Shown: positions 364-60,395 of the stretch, in pieces | Position numbering within the stretch: position 1 is the stretch's first letter | Layout: each line of letters starts with the position of its first letter | From: Solobacterium sp. | GTDB taxonomy: Bacteria > Bacillota_I > Bacilli_A > Erysipelotrichales > Erysipelotrichaceae | Assembly (NCBI GenBank): GCA_017512725.1 | Contig: JAFWEW010000023.1 | Location: forward strand, 1-64,000 | Direction: 5' to 3' | Length of the DNA: 64,000 nucleotides | Program-made: the position numbers and the translations under genes | The notes under the pieces: generated by a model | Databases searched by the model: none | Seen by the model: only the letters and a program-made list of their open reading frames with translations | Told to the model about the DNA's origin: nothing

Positions 364-645
364 TTACCACATCGCTTTACCGGTGTTCCCGAAATAATAG
401 ATTTCTTTGGAGCAGGAAGCAGATCTGCCATATTTCTTAAAAAATCTTACCGCCTTATTTGCCAGATCTTCATCAATATATTCCTTAGAATTTCTCAGAA
501 AATAACCGTCATTGGCGATCCATCCCGGATCGAGGATTGTAATGCCTGCGGCATCGTATTCTTCGTCTGAGTATTTATCCATCAATCCGCCGCCGGAAAC
601 GTTGTCTAATTCGGTTTCTTCAATCTTCCTGATATCTTCTGCCAT
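364..645 (-). CDS. Small protein with double-glycine leader (VSGGG), unknown core
   Basis: The protein is 93 residues. I chose the ATG at 645 because AGGAG lies 7 bases upstream and because the upstream neighbour starts the same way; a longer frame to 723 lacks such support. Residues 1-20 (MAEDIRKIEETELDNVSGGG) form an acidic leader ending in a double glycine, the cleavage signal used by C39-peptidase exporters of class II bacteriocins and related precursors. The core of about 73 residues is acidic then basic, with one cysteine and no zinc ribbon. The leader is nearly identical to that of the gene at 739-1020, so the two are tandem paralogues at least in the leader. No exporter lies beside it. 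Function unknown. Confidence 0.65.
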   Translation of the reverse strand: MAEDIRKIEETELDNVSGGGLMDKYSDEEYDAAGITILDPGWIANDGYFLRNSKEYIDEDLANKAVRFFKKYGRSASCSKEIYYFGNTGKAMW

Positions 646-738: not shown

Positions 739-1020
739 CTATTCAAAGTCAGTCGTATGGCGCCAGTAGTCGCAGTAAAGACAAGGAACCGCCGCACAGC
801 CAAACTTTTCAAACTGTCTTACGACGCGGTTTTGGTAAGGCGAATAACGTGCCCAGACTTCATTTCTGTCAAATGTCTTTTTGCAGAACTTGCAGGTCTT
901 GCCATTAAGCGAATCCATCACCGCAAGCATGTCATTCATGGTGGCACCTGCTGCAGCCAGAGCACCGCCGGAAACTTCGTCTAATTCCAGTTCTTCAATC
1001 TTTCTGATATCGTCTGTCAT
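739..1020 (-). CDS. Small protein with double-glycine leader (VSGG) and two CxxC pairs
   Basis: The protein is 93 residues and has AGGAG upstream of its ATG. The leader MTDDIRKIEELELDEVSGGA matches that of the next gene at most positions. The core starts with a small hydrophobic stretch (ALAAAGAT), then carries CKFC (about residue 43) and CLYC (about residue 81), a spacing that suggests a zinc-binding ribbon or knuckle. The 5' untranslated sequences of this gene and the next share an AAAGGAGAAATTT ribosome-site block and a CAATTG further up, so duplication included the leader region of the mRNA. Classical bacteriocins rarely have such a ribbon. Function unknown. Confidence 0.65.
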   Translation of the reverse strand: MTDDIRKIEELELDEVSGGALAAAGATMNDMLAVMDSLNGKTCKFCKKTFDRNEVWARYSPYQNRVVRQFEKFGCAAVPCLYCDYWRHTTDFE

Positions 1021-1982: not shown

Positions 1983-2246
1983 CGAAACATGGCAAGGAGA
2001 CCCCTCTTCTATAAGACAGGGTGGAATTGCCTTCCTCCTTTTCTTTTTATTCTCCAGAACTGCAGATCATGCTGTTCTTTCCCATATATCGGACGGTGTA
2101 CCTGGAGTGGTATTCTGACTGCGTTCTGCGGGACGATTCCTCTCCGGATACCGTTGTTGTTTTCATAATATACGTTTGTGATCGGATTATTCCTTGGAAA
2201 TGGCCGGTTTGTCCTGTTACACCCTCTTTTACGTGATGATCAGTTC

Positions 2247-2864
2247 TCAGAAATGATTCCAGTGGATCTGCTCTTCGGTGTTGACATCCAGCTGTTTGAC
2301 CTTGGCCGCATCTTCACGGGGACGGCCGATCCCGATGAAGCAGGGGATCATGAAGGAATCCGGGAAACCAAGGGCTTCTCGCGCAATCTCTTCCTCATTC
2401 CCCAAAGGGATCCGGACATTACATCCATAACCTTCTGAAGTTGCCGCAAGCCACACATTTTCAATACTGCACCAGATGGAGGCATAGCAGTTGAGATCAG
2501 ACAGGCAGGAGGGATGAAGGAGATCTGTTTTTTTCTTCATCAGCGGGATGAGAAGTGCTGACGCTTCGGTCAGCATCTTATACTGCAGCGGTACTGCGAT
2601 CTGATAGCTTTTCTTTTGGATCGGGTCGCTGATGAAAGTCATATCATCTACATCTCGTTCGGTCAGATTCTGCGGCACGCCGCTGACTGCCTGTTTCATG
2701 ATTTTCTTATCCGTAATCACGATGTAATGCCAGTCCCGGAAATGATCATTGGCCGGTGCGTAATATCCGGCTTCGACAATTCGCTTCAGGGTTTCCTCCG
2801 GAATTGTTTCCCCGGTAAACTGCCGGATGCTTCGTCTGGCCTTCACAACATCATAGAACTCCAT
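2247..2864 (-). CDS. Nitroreductase family protein
   Basis: The 205-residue product begins MEFYDVVKARRSIRQF, the usual start of FMN-dependent nitroreductases in which the RRS(I/V)R motif binds the flavin phosphate. The APANDH..DW.YIVI segment and the late GYGCNVRIPLG and IGIGRP blocks also fit. These enzymes reduce nitroaromatics, quinones or related electrophiles with NAD(P)H in the cytoplasm. I place the start at 2864, preceded by AAGGAAGA; a longer frame to 2990 would run through the flavodoxin gene. It overlaps the upstream flavodoxin gene by 14 bases and is the last gene of a MarR-controlled operon, which points to a redox or electrophile response. Confidence 0.85.
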   Translation of the reverse strand: MEFYDVVKARRSIRQFTGETIPEETLKRIVEAGYYAPANDHFRDWHYIVITDKKIMKQAVSGVPQNLTERDVDDMTFISDPIQKKSYQIAVPLQYKMLTEASALLIPLMKKKTDLLHPSCLSDLNCYASIWCSIENVWLAATSEGYGCNVRIPLGNEEEIAREALGFPDSFMIPCFIGIGRPREDAAKVKQLDVNTEEQIHWNHF

Positions 2865-3447
2865 TGTCTTCTTCCTTAGAATGATTTCTGATCGGATCAC
2901 AAGCAGATGTATCTGTCTGGGACAGTGCCTGGAGGATTGGCTCCAGACTGTTGAAATTGGTGAAATCAACCTGTTTGTTATAGGTTTCAATCATTGCCTG
3001 AACTTCTGCGTTTTTCTGTTCCTCCGGCAGGTTGACCGCTTTCCGGTAAACCATCGACATCATTGTTTTATGCAGAAAACTCAGCTGCGCATAATCGATG
3101 CCGCCTCTCAGATGAAAGATCTGAGCCTGCTCAAACAGTTCCTTTGATAGCTGGGATTTCATTTTGCTGCGGATCGTTTCGATGTTTTCCGGATCGGTCG
3201 GATCGGCAAGCCCCACGGTGACGATCATGACGTTCTTATGAGGAAGATCGGAAAGATGCTTCAGCGTCTGTTTCATTCCCTGTACGCCGCCGGCATATAA
3301 TCCACCCATGTAGATGATTGTTTTATAAGAATTGATGTCTTCAACGTTCTCATAGGATACTGCCGGGATTCCGGTTTTTTCAGACAGCGCTTCGGCATAT
3401 CTCCGGGTGGCTCCGTAACAGGATCCATAGACAATGATTTTATTCAT
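2851..3447 (-). CDS. Flavodoxin-domain protein
   Basis: The 198-residue protein starts MNKIIVYGSCYGATRRYAEAL: the S-x-Y-G-A-T-x-x-Y phosphate-binding loop of flavodoxins of the HemG/BilS-like type. Next come an IIYMGGLYAGG strand-loop and a VMIVTVGLADPTD segment. These are short-chain electron carriers or FMN proteins. The C-terminal third (about residues 120-198) is less typical and rich in helices. It lies between marR (8-base overlap) and the nitroreductase (14-base overlap), so the three are almost certainly translated together. Its exact partner is unknown; electron supply to the nitroreductase is an inference. Confidence 0.8.
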   Translation of the reverse strand: MNKIIVYGSCYGATRRYAEALSEKTGIPAVSYENVEDINSYKTIIYMGGLYAGGVQGMKQTLKHLSDLPHKNVMIVTVGLADPTDPENIETIRSKMKSQLSKELFEQAQIFHLRGGIDYAQLSFLHKTMMSMVYRKAVNLPEEQKNAEVQAMIETYNKQVDFTNFNSLEPILQALSQTDTSACDPIRNHSKEEDNGVL

Positions 3448-4026: not shown

Positions 4027-4956
4027 TTACTTTGCGCTGAAGGTTTCCAGCAGCTCAATGATGCGCAGGCTGATCGATTCGGTTTCCGGATCCGAGATGA
4101 TGCCGTTTTCAATCCGGTCGATAAACCGCTGCGCTTCAAAGGTGAATTCACTGCGGAATGGGAACTGATATTCTTTCTCCCCGTCATCCGACTGTATCCA
4201 ATACCGGTCGCTTTTCCAGAAAGAAGTACAGGTCAGGGTTCCCTTACTTCCGCGGATACGAAGATCACAATCCCCGTCTTCCTCAAACGAATAGCGCATG
4301 GTCATCGGGATGCCATCGCAGTCCATATGGAATACGCCTCCGGTATCCGTTCCCGAAACGGAACACTGATCAGTTGAGACAACAGTCATCTTTGTTCCAA
4401 ACAATCCGAATAATCCGGCAAGGCCGTAACAGCCCACATCATATAAAGCTCCTTTGCCGGGTGTATTCAGCCGCCATTCCTCCGCGTCATGCGGCTCTTT
4501 TCGGCAAAAGCCGGCAGAAGCCTCCAGTATCGTTCCAAGCTCCTGATTCTTCAGTACTTCCTTGATGGATTGAAAGGTCGGTGTATACAGGGTCTTATGC
4601 GCTTCCATCAGCACCAGATTGTTGGAACGGGCCAGTTCAAACAGTTCCTTCAGCTGATCTGCGGTGACCGTGACCGGTTTCTCACAGATCACATGTTTCC
4701 CGCTAAGCAGTGCCTGTCTGATCATATCGTAATGAACATGGTTGGGTGTGGATACATAGAAGCCGCGGATCGAAGGATCTTTACAAAGCGCATCAAAGGA
4801 GTCGATCTGATGGATCTGATATGCTTCGGCATATTCACGGACACGGTCTGGGTTTCGGGTGGCGAATGCACAAACACGGCCATTTGGCACATCCTTCATG
4901 CCTTCGAGAAACCTGCGGCTGATCCGGCCGGGGCCGGCAACTGCGATTTGGATCAT
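4027..4956 (-). CDS. Gfo/Idh/MocA family oxidoreductase
   Basis: The 309-residue protein starts MIQIAVAGPGRISRRFLEGM, a Rossmann NAD(P)-binding loop, and has the family hallmark CEKPVTVT near residue 95, whose lysine takes part in catalysis. The EAHKTLYTP and GALYDVGCYG segments fit the C-terminal substrate domain. Members oxidise or reduce sugars, inositols or related hydroxy compounds; the substrate cannot be read from sequence. It stands alone upstream of the marR operator. The 170-base gap to the kinase gene at 5127 should hold divergent promoters, but I saw no clean consensus. Confidence 0.85.
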   Translation of the reverse strand: MIQIAVAGPGRISRRFLEGMKDVPNGRVCAFATRNPDRVREYAEAYQIHQIDSFDALCKDPSIRGFYVSTPNHVHYDMIRQALLSGKHVICEKPVTVTADQLKELFELARSNNLVLMEAHKTLYTPTFQSIKEVLKNQELGTILEASAGFCRKEPHDAEEWRLNTPGKGALYDVGCYGLAGLFGLFGTKMTVVSTDQCSVSGTDTGGVFHMDCDGIPMTMRYSFEEDGDCDLRIRGSKGTLTCTSFWKSDRYWIQSDDGEKEYQFPFRSEFTFEAQRFIDRIENGIISDPETESISLRIIELLETFSAK

Positions 4957-14148: not shown

Positions 14149-14427
14149 ATGGAAAAAGTGTTTCGTGATACACCTGAGATTTTAAAAACCGATCATCTGG
14201 AAACGGTGTCGGCAGGGACTGAGAGGGCAGCCGGCAATTCCGGCATTCCTCTGCCGGGGGTTACCATGCCGACATGTACGATCTGCGGAAGCAAAGATAC
14301 AACGTGTGATGTTTTTAAAGAAAATGGAAAGTGGTACAAACAGTACAAATGTCTGAGCTGCGGCTCATATTTTTCGGAACGGCAGGAAGTTCAAATTCCC
14401 GATCAGATGCAGGTCAGGCCGCGGTGA
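14149..14427 (+). CDS. Small zinc-ribbon protein with leader ending VSAG
   Basis: The 92-residue protein has AAGGAG 10 bases before its ATG. The N-terminus ends in DHLETVSAGTE, which aligns with the VSGG leader ends of the next two genes but has Ala for the first Gly. The core holds CTIC (about residue 42) and CLSC (about residue 69) around an aromatic/basic strand region (KWYKQYK), a zinc-ribbon layout. It is the first of three such genes in a row on the plus strand. Whether the VSAG leader is still cut is unclear. Function unknown. Confidence 0.65.
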   Translation: MEKVFRDTPEILKTDHLETVSAGTERAAGNSGIPLPGVTMPTCTICGSKDTTCDVFKENGKWYKQYKCLSCGSYFSERQEVQIPDQMQVRPR

Positions 14428-14620
14428 TAATCATCCGGGTTTGATTACCGATTGAAGAGCATTTGGCATCGCTGATGAGAAAGGAAACGGTACCGTGTTT
14501 TTCGGTTATGAAGAGGAACCGTTTGCGAAATTGATCATTTTCTAGGAATAATTCTTTTCGGAAAACGATGTAATGCATGACAGGTTCCATTACAATTTAA
14601 AAAAGGAGAAGGAACGATCC

Positions 14621-14815
14621 ATGGGAGAAGAAAAGAAAGAAATTAATCCGGATCAGGAAAAAACGGTCAGCGGTGGTGCTGCAGCGCTTCCGAATATCTT
14701 TACCTGTCCGGAATGCGGGTCAAACGAAGTTTCTGTGACTTATATTTATACGAAAGAAGGAAAACGAATCCCGACAGGTTTGAGGTGCCGCAGCTGCGGT
14801 CATACCTGGAAATAA
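14621..14815 (+). CDS. Small zinc-ribbon protein with VSGG leader
   Basis: The 64-residue protein begins MGEEKKEINPDQEKTVSGGA, an acidic leader with double glycine, and AAGGA lies 7 bases before the ATG. The core of about 45 residues is nothing but a zinc ribbon: CPEC ... LRCRSCGHTW, the same pattern as transcription-factor-type ribbons (TFIIS or rubredoxin-like knuckles). Such a ribbon behind an export leader is unusual. A longer frame begins at 14573 but lacks a ribosome site. The preceding 190 bases (14428-14620) hold no gene I can support. Confidence 0.65.
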   Translation: MGEEKKEINPDQEKTVSGGAAALPNIFTCPECGSNEVSVTYIYTKEGKRIPTGLRCRSCGHTWK

Positions 14816-14925
14816 TGTCTGAAACGTTGCGGAAGGAAACGGCAGGTTCACTCTTCAGAGGGGAACTTTCCCGCGGATCTCCTGAGACATTGGTATGAAT
14901 TCAATCAGAGAAAGGTGAGGGTGAA

Positions 14926-15141
14926 ATTTTTAAGGAAGATGTAAAAGAAATCAATCAAAAAGAACTCGACACGGTGTCCGGCGGACACGAGGAGGACTGC
15001 TGCACCCATTATGTCTGTCCGATCTGCGGGGAAGAACTGATTCTGGTCAGATTTTATGGTTTCACGAAGCTTTACTATAAATGTTATGAGTGCAGTGAGA
15101 ATTTCAGCCTGGAAGAGATCGAGGGGAAAAACGGCCAGTGA
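14926..15141 (+). CDS. Small zinc-ribbon protein with VSGG leader, probable ATT start
   Basis: An open frame from 14899 to 15141 encodes a leader (FKEDVKEINQKELDTVSGGH) and a core with CPIC and CYEC knuckles, clearly a paralogue of the preceding gene. The frame has no ATG, GTG or TTG before the leader: a TGA stands at 14896, and the first usual start is the GTG that codes the V of VSGG. AAAGGTGAGG stands 6-10 bases before an ATT at 14926 that would give a 71-residue protein with a normal-length leader. ATT is a rare but known start. If it is not used, this is a pseudogene whose start was lost. Confidence 0.5.
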   Translation: MFKEDVKEINQKELDTVSGGHEEDCCTHYVCPICGEELILVRFYGFTKLYYKCYECSENFSLEEIEGKNGQ

Positions 15142-18232: not shown

Positions 18233-18556
18233 TTAATATTTTGTGATGACTCCATAACTGGATACTTTGAAGTAGCAGTTACATTTCCGGCATCTGTATT
18301 TGGTTGCGGAATCTGTAAACATTGAAGCCCAGAACTGACGTGAAATTTCATCTCTTTCTCCGTTGCCGCAGTCAGGGCAATGGATGTCGATATCAAGTCT
18401 TTTATAACCTCCATTCACTTCTTCTAAATAGTTGTCAGGAAGAGACCTCTCAAATTCTTCCGGATCGATTCCGTTGTCGGCCAGAATCTTGCATACCTGA
18501 ACATCGGACTCTGCTGACTCAAGCTTTGTCAAAAGTTCCTTTGGTAAATTCATCAT
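18233..18556 (-). CDS. Nif11-like leader protein with zinc-ribbon core
   Basis: The 107-residue protein has a long leader (about residues 3-50) of the Nif11 type: an LTKLESAESDVQVCKILADN helix, NGIDPEEFERSLP, and the end LEEVNGG. Nif11 leaders serve RiPP precursors in cyanobacteria and other bacteria. The core holds CPDCGNGE and YRCRKCNCYF, a zinc ribbon rather than a thioether or bacteriocin core. AAGGAGATG lies 7 bases before the ATG. It stands alone, next to the toxin-antitoxin pair, and is a longer-leader relative of the zinc-ribbon genes at 14149-15141. Function unknown. Confidence 0.65.
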   Translation of the reverse strand: MMNLPKELLTKLESAESDVQVCKILADNGIDPEEFERSLPDNYLEEVNGGYKRLDIDIHCPDCGNGERDEISRQFWASMFTDSATKYRCRKCNCYFKVSSYGVITKY

Positions 18557-58910: not shown

Positions 58911-59174
58911 TTATGCCCGTTTCAGGTTTTCTTCCAGCACATCTCTCGAATCGTGTTCTTCGTTATAGTTGTCTTTCAGCCAGTGGACGGCGTACATATT
59001 CCAGAAATGAGTCTGAAACTGGTAATAATAGGCTTCTGTAATGATACCAATCTGGTCATAGTATTTCAGAGTCACTCTGTCTCCGACCGCAAATGCAAAG
59101 GTCTGAGGTGTTTCCGTTCCTCCTGAGATGCCTTCCATAAAACGGTCATCCAGCACTTTTTTGTTCTCCGTCAT
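58911..59174 (-). CDS. Small protein with double-glycine leader (ISGG) and beta-barrel-like core
   Basis: The 87-residue protein has CGGAGG 8 bases before the ATG at 59174. Its N-terminus, MTENKKVLDDRFMEGISGGTE, is an acidic leader ending in a double glycine. The core has a KOW/SH3-like feel (VGDRVTLKYYDQIGIITEAYY, then MYAVHWLKDN) and no cysteines, so it is not a zinc ribbon. It is alone on the minus strand and no exporter is adjacent; the 58769-58910 gap holds no gene. Function unknown. Confidence 0.6.
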   Translation of the reverse strand: MTENKKVLDDRFMEGISGGTETPQTFAFAVGDRVTLKYYDQIGIITEAYYYQFQTHFWNMYAVHWLKDNYNEEHDSRDVLEENLKRA

Positions 59175-59359: not shown

Positions 59360-59809
59360 ATGATGAAGGAATGCGAGTACGCAAATCAGAATGCGACAAA
59401 GGAACAGGTGGAACAGGCGATTAACACTGTAAAGGAGCTGATGAATCATCAGCCGCTGCCGCTGTCAAATGAACGTCCGTTCGCTGCGCTGGTCGGATAT
59501 CAGGAAGAAGCGACCGGAAGAAAATTCCTGCTGAAAGAGATCCGGGTATTTCCGTCGTTTGAATTATTTGATTCCGAAACCAGACGGGAAGGCTTTCACC
59601 GGCTCTTTGTGGTGAATGGCAGTTCGGAAAATTCCGAAGCCGGAAAGAACCAGACAACGCCGGATGGGGAGCCGTTTCTGTTTCGGGCCGTTGAATCGTT
59701 CACGATGGAAGAAGTCGAGAAATACCTGAAAGAGCATAAACCGACATTTCGAAAACCGGATGACAAGAATAGAATGATGAAAGCGAAAGGGGATTGTTAT
59801 GTTGAATGA
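59360..59809 (+). CDS. Conserved-looking protein of unknown function
   Basis: The 149-residue protein has no motif I recognise. The start region is charged and helical (KEQVEQAINTVKELMNHQ), the middle resembles a beta-rich fold (ALVGYQEEATGRKFLLKEIRVFPSFELFD) and the end is basic. It precedes a CPBP protease gene and overlaps it by 11 bases, so it is co-expressed. The 59175-59359 gap before it has no clear feature. Confidence 0.5.
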   Translation: MMKECEYANQNATKEQVEQAINTVKELMNHQPLPLSNERPFAALVGYQEEATGRKFLLKEIRVFPSFELFDSETRREGFHRLFVVNGSSENSEAGKNQTTPDGEPFLFRAVESFTMEEVEKYLKEHKPTFRKPDDKNRMMKAKGDCYVE

Positions 59810-60395
59810 GATGATCGGATCCGTGGTACAGGTATGTCTGTTTGCGCTGGTGCCGCTGATCGTCTGGCTTGTTACCGCACGGAAAGAAGCGTCTTTTTTC
59901 GCATGGATCGGTCTTAAAAAACCAGTCTGTAAAGAAAAAACGAAAACCCTGCTGATTACCGCAATTGCGGCAATCGCTTATATCACAGCGATGAATCTCA
60001 GTATGAAAATTCTGCCGGAGGGAATCACCACGGCCGGTTCCCAGTTTGCCGGCATGGGAATGGCAGGTCTTGTTGCGGTATTCTTCAATGCGTTTGTGCG
60101 CACGGCATTATCGGAAGAACTGCTGTTCCGCGGTTTCCTGTTAAAACGTATTTCGAACAAATATGGATTTCCTGCCGGAAACACCATACAGGCACTGCTG
60201 TTCGGTCTTCTGCACGGAATTCCGTTCGGCCTTGTCACCAAAAGTGTTTTCACCGTGATTCTGTTAACACTGCTGCCTGGTCTTTTCGGATGGTTCCAGG
60301 GCTGGCTGAATGAAAAACAGTGCGATGGATCGATCGTGCCGAGCTGGCTGCTTCACGGATGTATCAATTTTCTGACGGGTATCCTGTCCCTGTAA
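59799..60395 (+). CDS. CPBP-family intramembrane metalloprotease
   Basis: The 198-residue membrane protein has the motif SEELLFRGFLLKR (EExxxR, catalytic Glu pair), a later HG in LLFGLLHGIPFG and LLHGCIN near the end: the three conserved regions of the CPBP (Abi/CAAX) family. Such proteins are often bacteriocin-immunity or maturation proteases. In the window a leader-peptide gene lies about 600 bases away on the other strand, but a functional tie is only a guess. Confidence 0.8.
   Translation: MLNEMIGSVVQVCLFALVPLIVWLVTARKEASFFAWIGLKKPVCKEKTKTLLITAIAAIAYITAMNLSMKILPEGITTAGSQFAGMGMAGLVAVFFNAFVRTALSEELLFRGFLLKRISNKYGFPAGNTIQALLFGLLHGIPFGLVTKSVFTVILLTLLPGLFGWFQGWLNEKQCDGSIVPSWLLHGCINFLTGILSL

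What the first reader, a model, noticed from the sequence alone, without database searches (positions are those of the whole stretch)
14149..15141. A family of zinc-ribbon small proteins behind double-glycine (VSGG) leaders
Three consecutive genes code an acidic leader ending VSAG/VSGG/VSGG, followed by nothing but a CxxC...CxxC ribbon (CTIC..CLSC, CPEC..CRSC, CPIC..CYEC). Two more VSGG genes lie at 364-645 and 739-1020, an ISGG gene at 58911-59174, and a Nif11-type leader with VNGG and a zinc ribbon at 18233-18556. Leaders are alike while cores differ, as expected for a precursor family processed by a shared enzyme. Double-glycine leaders are known for bacteriocins and RiPPs (established knowledge); a zinc ribbon as the cargo is unusual in my view. 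They could be secreted metal-binding effectors, signals, or RiPP precursors.
Basis: partly seen in the sequence, partly recalled or inferred. Interest (0 to 1): 0.85.

Follow-up and report, generated by a model that had tools for sequence, protein, structure and literature searches.

The report
Export-tagged zinc-ribbon proteins of gut bacterium
A gut bacterium carries a scattered set of tiny proteins, many of them zinc-binding modules resembling parts of the transcription machinery, each behind a short tag of the kind that a dedicated pump clips off while pushing the rest out of the cell; this suggests a previously undescribed cargo for a known secretion route.

Summary
Three neighbouring genes (14149-15141) and 18233-18556 put a double-glycine (GG) leader before a Cys4 zinc ribbon; 739-1020 is a looser case. 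The GG genes at 364-645 and 58911-59174 have other cores. The third gene lacks an ATG/GTG/TTG start in frame.

The genome (an Erysipelotrichaceae gut bacterium) encodes an NHLM-type C39 peptidase/ABC exporter with intact catalytic residues, on another contig. Among 60 genomes of the genus, 14 of 14 with this exporter have GG-leader genes, against 3 of 46 without it. Relatives of the second ribbon keep both parts; the near-invariant columns are leader residues, the four cysteines and one serine. That ribbon is of TFIIS/RPB9 type.

The repertoire is wider than ribbons: sister genomes put the same leaders before a complete IF-1, a thioredoxin, two ferredoxins and many unknown domains; a LysM domain lies beside such an exporter in another gut MAG.

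Best reading: the small-protein cargoes of one C39 exporter. Leader and exporter are a known kind; the cargo class appears undescribed. Export, cleavage, zinc binding and function are inferred.

The parts
14149..14427 (+). Gene 1: GG-type leader (14149-14217, ends VSAG) and Cys4 zinc ribbon core (14218-14424)
   Evidence: leader has Leu -12, Leu -7, Val -4; profile A4 of gene 2 relatives matches it at E 1.6e-8
14621..14815 (+). Gene 2: leader (14621-14677, ends VSGG; Glu at -7) and TFIIS/RPB9-type zinc ribbon core (14678-14812)
14926..15141 (+). Gene 3: leader (14926-14985, ends VSGG; ATT start or frameshift after GTG 14922) and Cys4 zinc ribbon core (14986-15138)
18233..18556 (-). Nif11-like leader ending VNGG (18556-18407) and Cys4 ribbon of the CPDCG..SRQFWA..YRCRKCN family
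   Evidence: family model Nif11 not reached by this ORF itself
739..1020 (-). GG leader (VSGG) and core with two CxxC pairs 36 residues apart or more
364..645 (-). GG leader (VSGG) and core without zinc ligands
58911..59174 (-). GG leader (ISGG) and core without zinc ligands

Best explanation
These genes encode cargoes of a leader-addressed small-protein export system. Shown from sequence: an N-terminal double-glycine leader, in most of the genes with hydrophobic residues at -12, -7 and -4 (the contacts known from solved C39 complexes), fused to a small domain, here a Cys4 zinc ribbon; and, elsewhere in the genome, an NHLM-type exporter whose C39 peptidase keeps Gln, Cys, His and Asp. Inferred: the leader docks on the C39 domain, the bond after GG is cut, and the ribbon (about 45-70 residues) passes through the ABC channel and binds zinc in the oxygen-poor gut lumen or at the cell surface. 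One exporter serves many unlinked cargo genes, so a small domain can become a cargo by gaining the leader. What the ribbons do outside is not shown; my guess is a pool of diversified extracellular effectors or surface proteins.
For: Genome-wide leaders: 14 matches of TIGR01847 and 27 of the genome's own leader profile. Exporter: ABC1 over the TIGR03796 cut-off, ABC2 beside it, catalytic residues present. Co-occurrence: 14/14 exporter-plus genomes of the genus have leaders against 3/46 exporter-minus. Co-conservation: in 15 relatives of gene 2 the invariant columns are M1, the first G of the leader, four Cys and a Ser, with V(-4) nearly invariant, at about 30% identity. Leader positions match solved C39-leader contacts. 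Ribbons are not a composition effect: 31 of 110 cores have the Cys4 pattern, against a mean of 1.6 (maximum 7) when residues are shuffled within cores. Purifying selection in diverged pairs, dN/dS 0.14-0.30. A GG-leader ribbon lies next to an exporter pair in G001:C43. A LysM cargo, expected only outside the cell, lies beside a related exporter.
Against: No experiment: cleavage, export and zinc binding are untested. The window genes are not linked to the exporter. Gene 2 and its relatives have a polar residue at -7, a position at which the solved complexes have Leu. Cargoes such as ferredoxin, IF-1 and thioredoxin are normally cytoplasmic, which makes export of them surprising. The co-occurrence test is not corrected for relatedness. 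Gene 3 may be broken.
Confidence: 0.7

Rival explanations
1. RiPP precursors: the cores are chemically modified (for example at Cys) by enzymes acting in trans before C39 export, and the CxxC pairs are modification sites rather than zinc ligands.
For: The exporter family and the Nif11-like leaders are typical of RiPP systems (PMC2887384); the genome has a Nif11-leader peptide next to a radical SAM protein on C16; in G015 a Cys-rich GG peptide and a radical SAM protein lie next to the exporter.
Against: No modifying enzyme recognised beside the window genes. Cores look like whole folded domains: ribbons match TFIIS/RPB9 profiles, others are a full IF-1 or thioredoxin.
Confidence: 0.1
2. The leader is a docking tag, not an export signal: some or all of these proteins stay inside and bind an exporter domain, for example as regulators or adaptors, with the dead C39-like domain of the second exporter as partner.
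For: A second exporter pair with a C39 domain lacking Cys and His is found in 9 genomes of the genus, all of which also have the live one. Gene 2 relatives, with an unusual -7 residue, were found in 8 of these 9 and in none of the 5 genomes with only the live exporter (p 0.003). In G000 and G010 a leaderless double-zinc-ribbon protein precedes that exporter.
Against: Most leaders fit the cleavable class; the 8/9 pattern may be kinship, since the same genomes have the most similar live exporters; a LysM cargo makes sense only outside.
Confidence: 0.12
3. Class II bacteriocins: the exported ribbons kill or inhibit competing bacteria.
For: Leader type and exporter are those of bacteriocins; gene 3 passes TIGR01847; patchy distribution and tandem paralogues.
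Against: No adjacent immunity gene recognised at 14149-15141; low dN/dS; cores lack the short amphipathic or hydrophobic character of class II bacteriocins (reading of the sequences, not a test).
Confidence: 0.15
4. Chance: small ORFs with an accidental V/I-S-G-G motif in front of ordinary intracellular ribbons.
For: The motif is short, and some matches in exporter-minus genomes are spurious.
Against: Shuffled windows give none; exporter-minus congeners almost none; leader and ribbon are conserved together; dN/dS below 1.
Confidence: 0.02

Closest known systems
NHLP and Nif11-derived (N11P) precursors with the TIGR03794/03796/03797 exporter (Haft, Basu and Mitchell 2010, PMC2887384)
   Same: Same exporter families (ABC1 over the equivalog cut-off), same leader logo before GG, several precursors per genome, Nif11-like leader in 18233-18556 and relatives
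   Different: There the core after GG is a short hypervariable stretch rich in modifiable residues; here it is a whole domain with conserved zinc ligands, most leaders are short, and no modifying enzyme was recognised beside the window genes
PCAT1 of Clostridium thermocellum and its cargo CtA (PMC6959990)
   Same: C39/ABC exporter with a small-protein cargo (24-residue leader, 66-residue cargo); leader contacts at -12, -7, -4 and GG; cargo itself not selected by the channel
   Different: One cargo described there; here many unlinked cargoes, and a two-ABC NHLM-type exporter
MAM of Faecalibacterium with its PCAT (PMC8836110, PMC12184118)
   Same: Gut bacterium; small protein with a GG leader, proposed to be cut and sent to the cell envelope by a C39 exporter
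   Different: A single abundant helical protein, not a zinc ribbon; processing there is also inferred
LahT of a Lachnospiraceae bacterium (PMC6363468)
   Same: C39 domain that cuts many GG leaders, recognising about the last 13 residues
   Different: Substrates are RiPP precursors of one cluster
TFIIS/RPB9/RPC10 zinc ribbons
   Same: Profile of gene 2 relatives matches 1qyp, RPC10 and RPB9 chains (best E 7e-8); Pfam PF01096 over its cut-off for gene 2
   Different: Those are intracellular transcription proteins without a leader

Membership tests
Double-glycine leader substrates of C39 exporters | GG (or GA/AG) at -2/-1 with hydrophobic -4, -7 and -12 | tested here: met
   Met by six of the seven window genes; gene 2 has Glu at -7. 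Partly circular for the genus-wide set, as -4 and -7 were in the search pattern and -12 in the profile
Double-glycine leader substrates of C39 exporters | Genome encodes a C39 exporter with active-site residues | tested here: met
   C45 exporter; Gln, Cys, His, Asp aligned
Double-glycine leader substrates of C39 exporters | Leader cut after GG and core exported | not testable with these tools
   Needs biochemistry or mass spectrometry
NHLM/N11P precursor system | Exporter of the TIGR03796 and TIGR03797 families | tested here: met
   ABC1 923 against 853 bits; ABC2 694 bits, just under its cut-off of 709
NHLM/N11P precursor system | HlyD-like TIGR03794 partner | tested here: not met
   Only a 161-residue protein with a 28-bit match to the N-terminus, cut-off 156
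NHLM/N11P precursor system | Nif11 leader model (PF07862 or TIGR03798) over cut-off | tested here: not met
   18233-18556 not reported; related proteins reach TIGR03798 at E 5e-5 to 4e-4, below the cut-off
NHLM/N11P precursor system (as RiPP) | Modifying enzyme linked to the precursor | tested here: inconclusive
   None recognised beside 14149-15141 by reading the ORFs; enzymes acting in trans are not excluded
TFIIS/RPB9-type zinc ribbon (gene 2) | CxxC..CxxC with profile match to the family | tested here: met
TFIIS/RPB9-type zinc ribbon (gene 2) | Fold | tested here: inconclusive
   Single-sequence model, pLDDT 77; Foldseek finds nothing significant; VIA-align ranks 1tfi first but only at Z 3.5, 2.5 A over 44 residues
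TFIIS/RPB9-type zinc ribbon (gene 2) | Binds zinc | not testable with these tools
   Needs protein
Class II bacteriocin | Cognate immunity gene adjacent | tested here: inconclusive
   None recognised at 14149-15141 by reading the ORFs; no systematic search made
Class II bacteriocin | Antibacterial activity | not testable with these tools
   Needs an assay

The most novel reading that the evidence does not exclude
A secretion route that recruits copies of cytoplasmic housekeeping domains (TFIIS-type ribbons, IF-1, thioredoxin, ferredoxin) by fusing them to a GG leader, and sends them out as decoys or effectors that act on the transcription, translation or redox machinery of other cells.
Probability: 0.12. 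Interest if true: 0.92.

Novelty: new variant of a known kind. Interest (0 to 1): 0.72.

Why it matters
GG leaders are used to find short bacteriocins and RiPPs. If whole metal-binding or housekeeping-type domains travel the same way, C39 exporters are general small-protein secretion systems in gut anaerobes, and a class of secreted proteins is being missed because searches look for short cores or Sec signals. It also makes a clear question testable: is the leader alone enough to turn a cytoplasmic-type domain into a cargo? The IF-1 and thioredoxin fusions are natural experiments for it.

Tried and rejected
Chance motif: rejected by shuffled windows, exporter-minus congeners and dN/dS. Leaderless homologues within the genus: no convincing one found for gene 2 in exporter-minus genomes; leaderless ribbon hits elsewhere in the phylum-wide search mostly lie in longer ORFs and look like ordinary ribbons. 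Phage or plasmid origin: gene 2 has no match in 50,697 phage records; a Nif11-leader ribbon from another family of the class (sequence) has none in 72,556 plasmid records. Prior description: no paper in the library holds 'Nif11' with 'zinc ribbon'; the one paper with double-glycine, leader peptide and zinc ribbon concerns Treponema antimicrobial peptides (listed, not read). The model of 18233-18556 is too poor to use (pLDDT 61).

Full report
What is there. The window is the first 64 kb of contig C1 of a 2.72 Mb draft. At 14149-15141 lie three small genes whose products are a leader ending VSAG/VSGG/VSGG followed by a Cys4 zinc ribbon. The third lacks a normal start codon: the in-frame candidate for a whole leader is ATT at 14926, and a GTG at 14922 with a good ribosome-binding site is out of frame across TTTTT. 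A homopolymer error, a real frameshift and an ATT start all remain possible. Four more GG-leader genes are at 364-645, 739-1020, 18233-18556 and 58911-59174, all on the minus strand; 18233 has a clear ribbon, 739 a looser one, 364 and 58911 none.

It is genome-wide. The bacteriocin leader model TIGR01847 gives 14 matches in this genome at E <= 10, five of them over its cut-off, and a profile of the genome's own leaders (A2) gives 27 at E <= 3. The ORFs are short, the cores diverse, mostly 30-100 residues, and several are ribbons.

The exporter. The genome has two C39/ABC pairs. On C45, ABC1 passes the TIGR03796 equivalog cut-off, and alignment shows Gln, Cys, His and Asp in place; ABC2, a short HlyD-like protein and an ECF sigma factor lie with it. 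On C12 the C39 domain has Asn for Cys and Tyr for His. The same Cys loss, with Tyr or Cys for His, is seen in the three congeners aligned, so the domain is kept in a form that can hardly cut but might bind.

In 60 genomes of the genus the live exporter is in 14 (in one, G010, as a fragment at a contig end), and all 14 have GG-leader ORFs. Of 46 without it, three drafts (70-87% complete) have one such ORF each (sequences; Fisher p 4e-11). Relatedness is not corrected for. Homologues of gene 2 in seven other genomes carry leader and ribbon. In their alignment A4, at about 30% identity, the invariant columns are M1, the first G of the leader, the four Cys and a Ser, with V(-4) nearly so. The closest one, in G010, has no recognisable start, as in gene 3 of the window.

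What the leaders look like. Over 110 leaders, -12, -7 and -4 are hydrophobic in 97-99%, and -10 to -8 and -6 are mostly acidic. This is partly circular, since -7 and -4 were in the search pattern and -12 in the profile, but it matches the contacts in the PCAT1-CtA and LahT structures (PMC6959990, PMC6363468). Gene 2 and its relatives form a distinct leader class, usually with Glu or another polar residue at -7. It is found in 8 of the 9 genomes with the dead exporter and in none of 5 with only the live one (p 0.003). The same genomes also share the most similar live exporters, so kinship may explain this.

What the ribbons are. A profile of gene 2 relatives matches archaeal 1qyp and eukaryotic RPC10 and RPB9 chains (best E 7e-8) and, more weakly, TFIIS; Pfam Zn_ribbon_TFIIS is over its cut-off. 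The single-sequence model agrees only weakly. The 18233 family sits behind Nif11-like leaders, and in some genomes behind two leaders in series, a short GG leader and then a Nif11-like one. In another family of the class (1.1-1.3 Mb genomes) a rather uniform Nif11-like leader precedes about a dozen different ribbons. Whether those genomes have a C39 exporter was not tested.

The wider cargo. Behind the same leaders in sister genomes stand a complete IF-1 (over the TIGR00008 cut-off, and additional to a normal infA in G003), a thioredoxin with WCGPC (G426:C284; Pfam E 5e-16) and two tandem ferredoxin-like proteins (G011:C70). Beside a related exporter in an uncultured Clostridia MAG there is a LysM domain (L219). 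So the ribbon is one of many small domains given this leader. Each of these housekeeping-type cases comes from a single draft genome.

Chance and selection. Cys4 patterns are in 31 of 110 collected cores, against a mean of 1.6 after shuffling residues within cores; some regions were fetched by ribbon queries, so the fraction is inflated, but in regions fetched by leader or exporter alone it is still 16 of 79. Diverged pairs have dN/dS 0.14-0.30, so these are real genes under constraint.

Who it is. The closest named records to the exporter are uncultured Solobacterium sp. and Erysipelotrichaceae MAGs; contigs of two sister genomes have the same lengths as named records (15195 and 5133 bases), which places the genus in Erysipelotrichaceae, with one record from reindeer.

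How it most likely works. The leader addresses the precursor to the C39 domain, which cuts after GG, and the ABC channel exports the core. PCAT1 work says that the leader alone is read and that the channel has no specific site for the cargo, which would explain why unrelated domains can share the route. Outside, in an oxygen-poor setting, a Cys4 ribbon could hold zinc. None of these steps is shown for these proteins, and their function is unknown. The most novel reading, exported copies of housekeeping domains acting on other cells, is not excluded but has no direct support.

Verdict. A real, sizeable and apparently undescribed cargo class for a known export mechanism.

Noticed in passing
L328:5521-5838 (G003:C63:60020-60337): Complete translation initiation factor IF-1 directly behind a VSGG leader, a second copy besides the normal infA at G003:C63:49568.
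   Followed up: yes
L308 (G426:C284:30287-30667): Whole thioredoxin with WCGPC behind a VSGG leader.
   Followed up: partly
L329:4111-4389 and 4467-4745 (G011:C70): Two tandem ferredoxin-like [4Fe-4S] proteins, each behind a GG leader.
   Followed up: partly
L004:10020-12203 (G000:C12): Second exporter whose C39 domain lacks the catalytic Cys and His; conserved in nine genomes of the genus, always together with the live one. A leaderless double-zinc-ribbon protein precedes it in G000 and G010.
   Followed up: partly
L092 (G000:C12:94859-95326); L148 (G010:C116:9102-11228): Tandem leaders: a short GG leader, then a Nif11-like leader ending in GG, then a ribbon, so two possible cut sites in one precursor. 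In G000 another such gene is split over the ends of contigs C40 and C31.
   Followed up: partly
L360, L361, L337, L354 and others (G116, G098, G371): A distant family of the class with 1.1-1.3 Mb genomes has about a dozen different ribbons behind a uniform Nif11-like leader.
   Followed up: partly
L219:10157-10393: LysM domain behind a VSGG leader near a related exporter in an uncultured Clostridia MAG.
   Followed up: partly
L019:1375-1878 and 2009-3094 (G000:C16): Nif11-leader peptide followed by a radical SAM protein: a probable true RiPP cluster in the same genome.
   Followed up: no
window 59799-60395: Membrane protein resembling CPBP/CAAX-type proteases, a group that includes bacteriocin immunity proteins, near the GG gene at 58911-59174 (by reading, no search).
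   Followed up: no
L303 (G426:C261:2617-3872): Four tandem paralogous GG-leader genes sharing a core with CPYC..RCNRKG.
   Followed up: no
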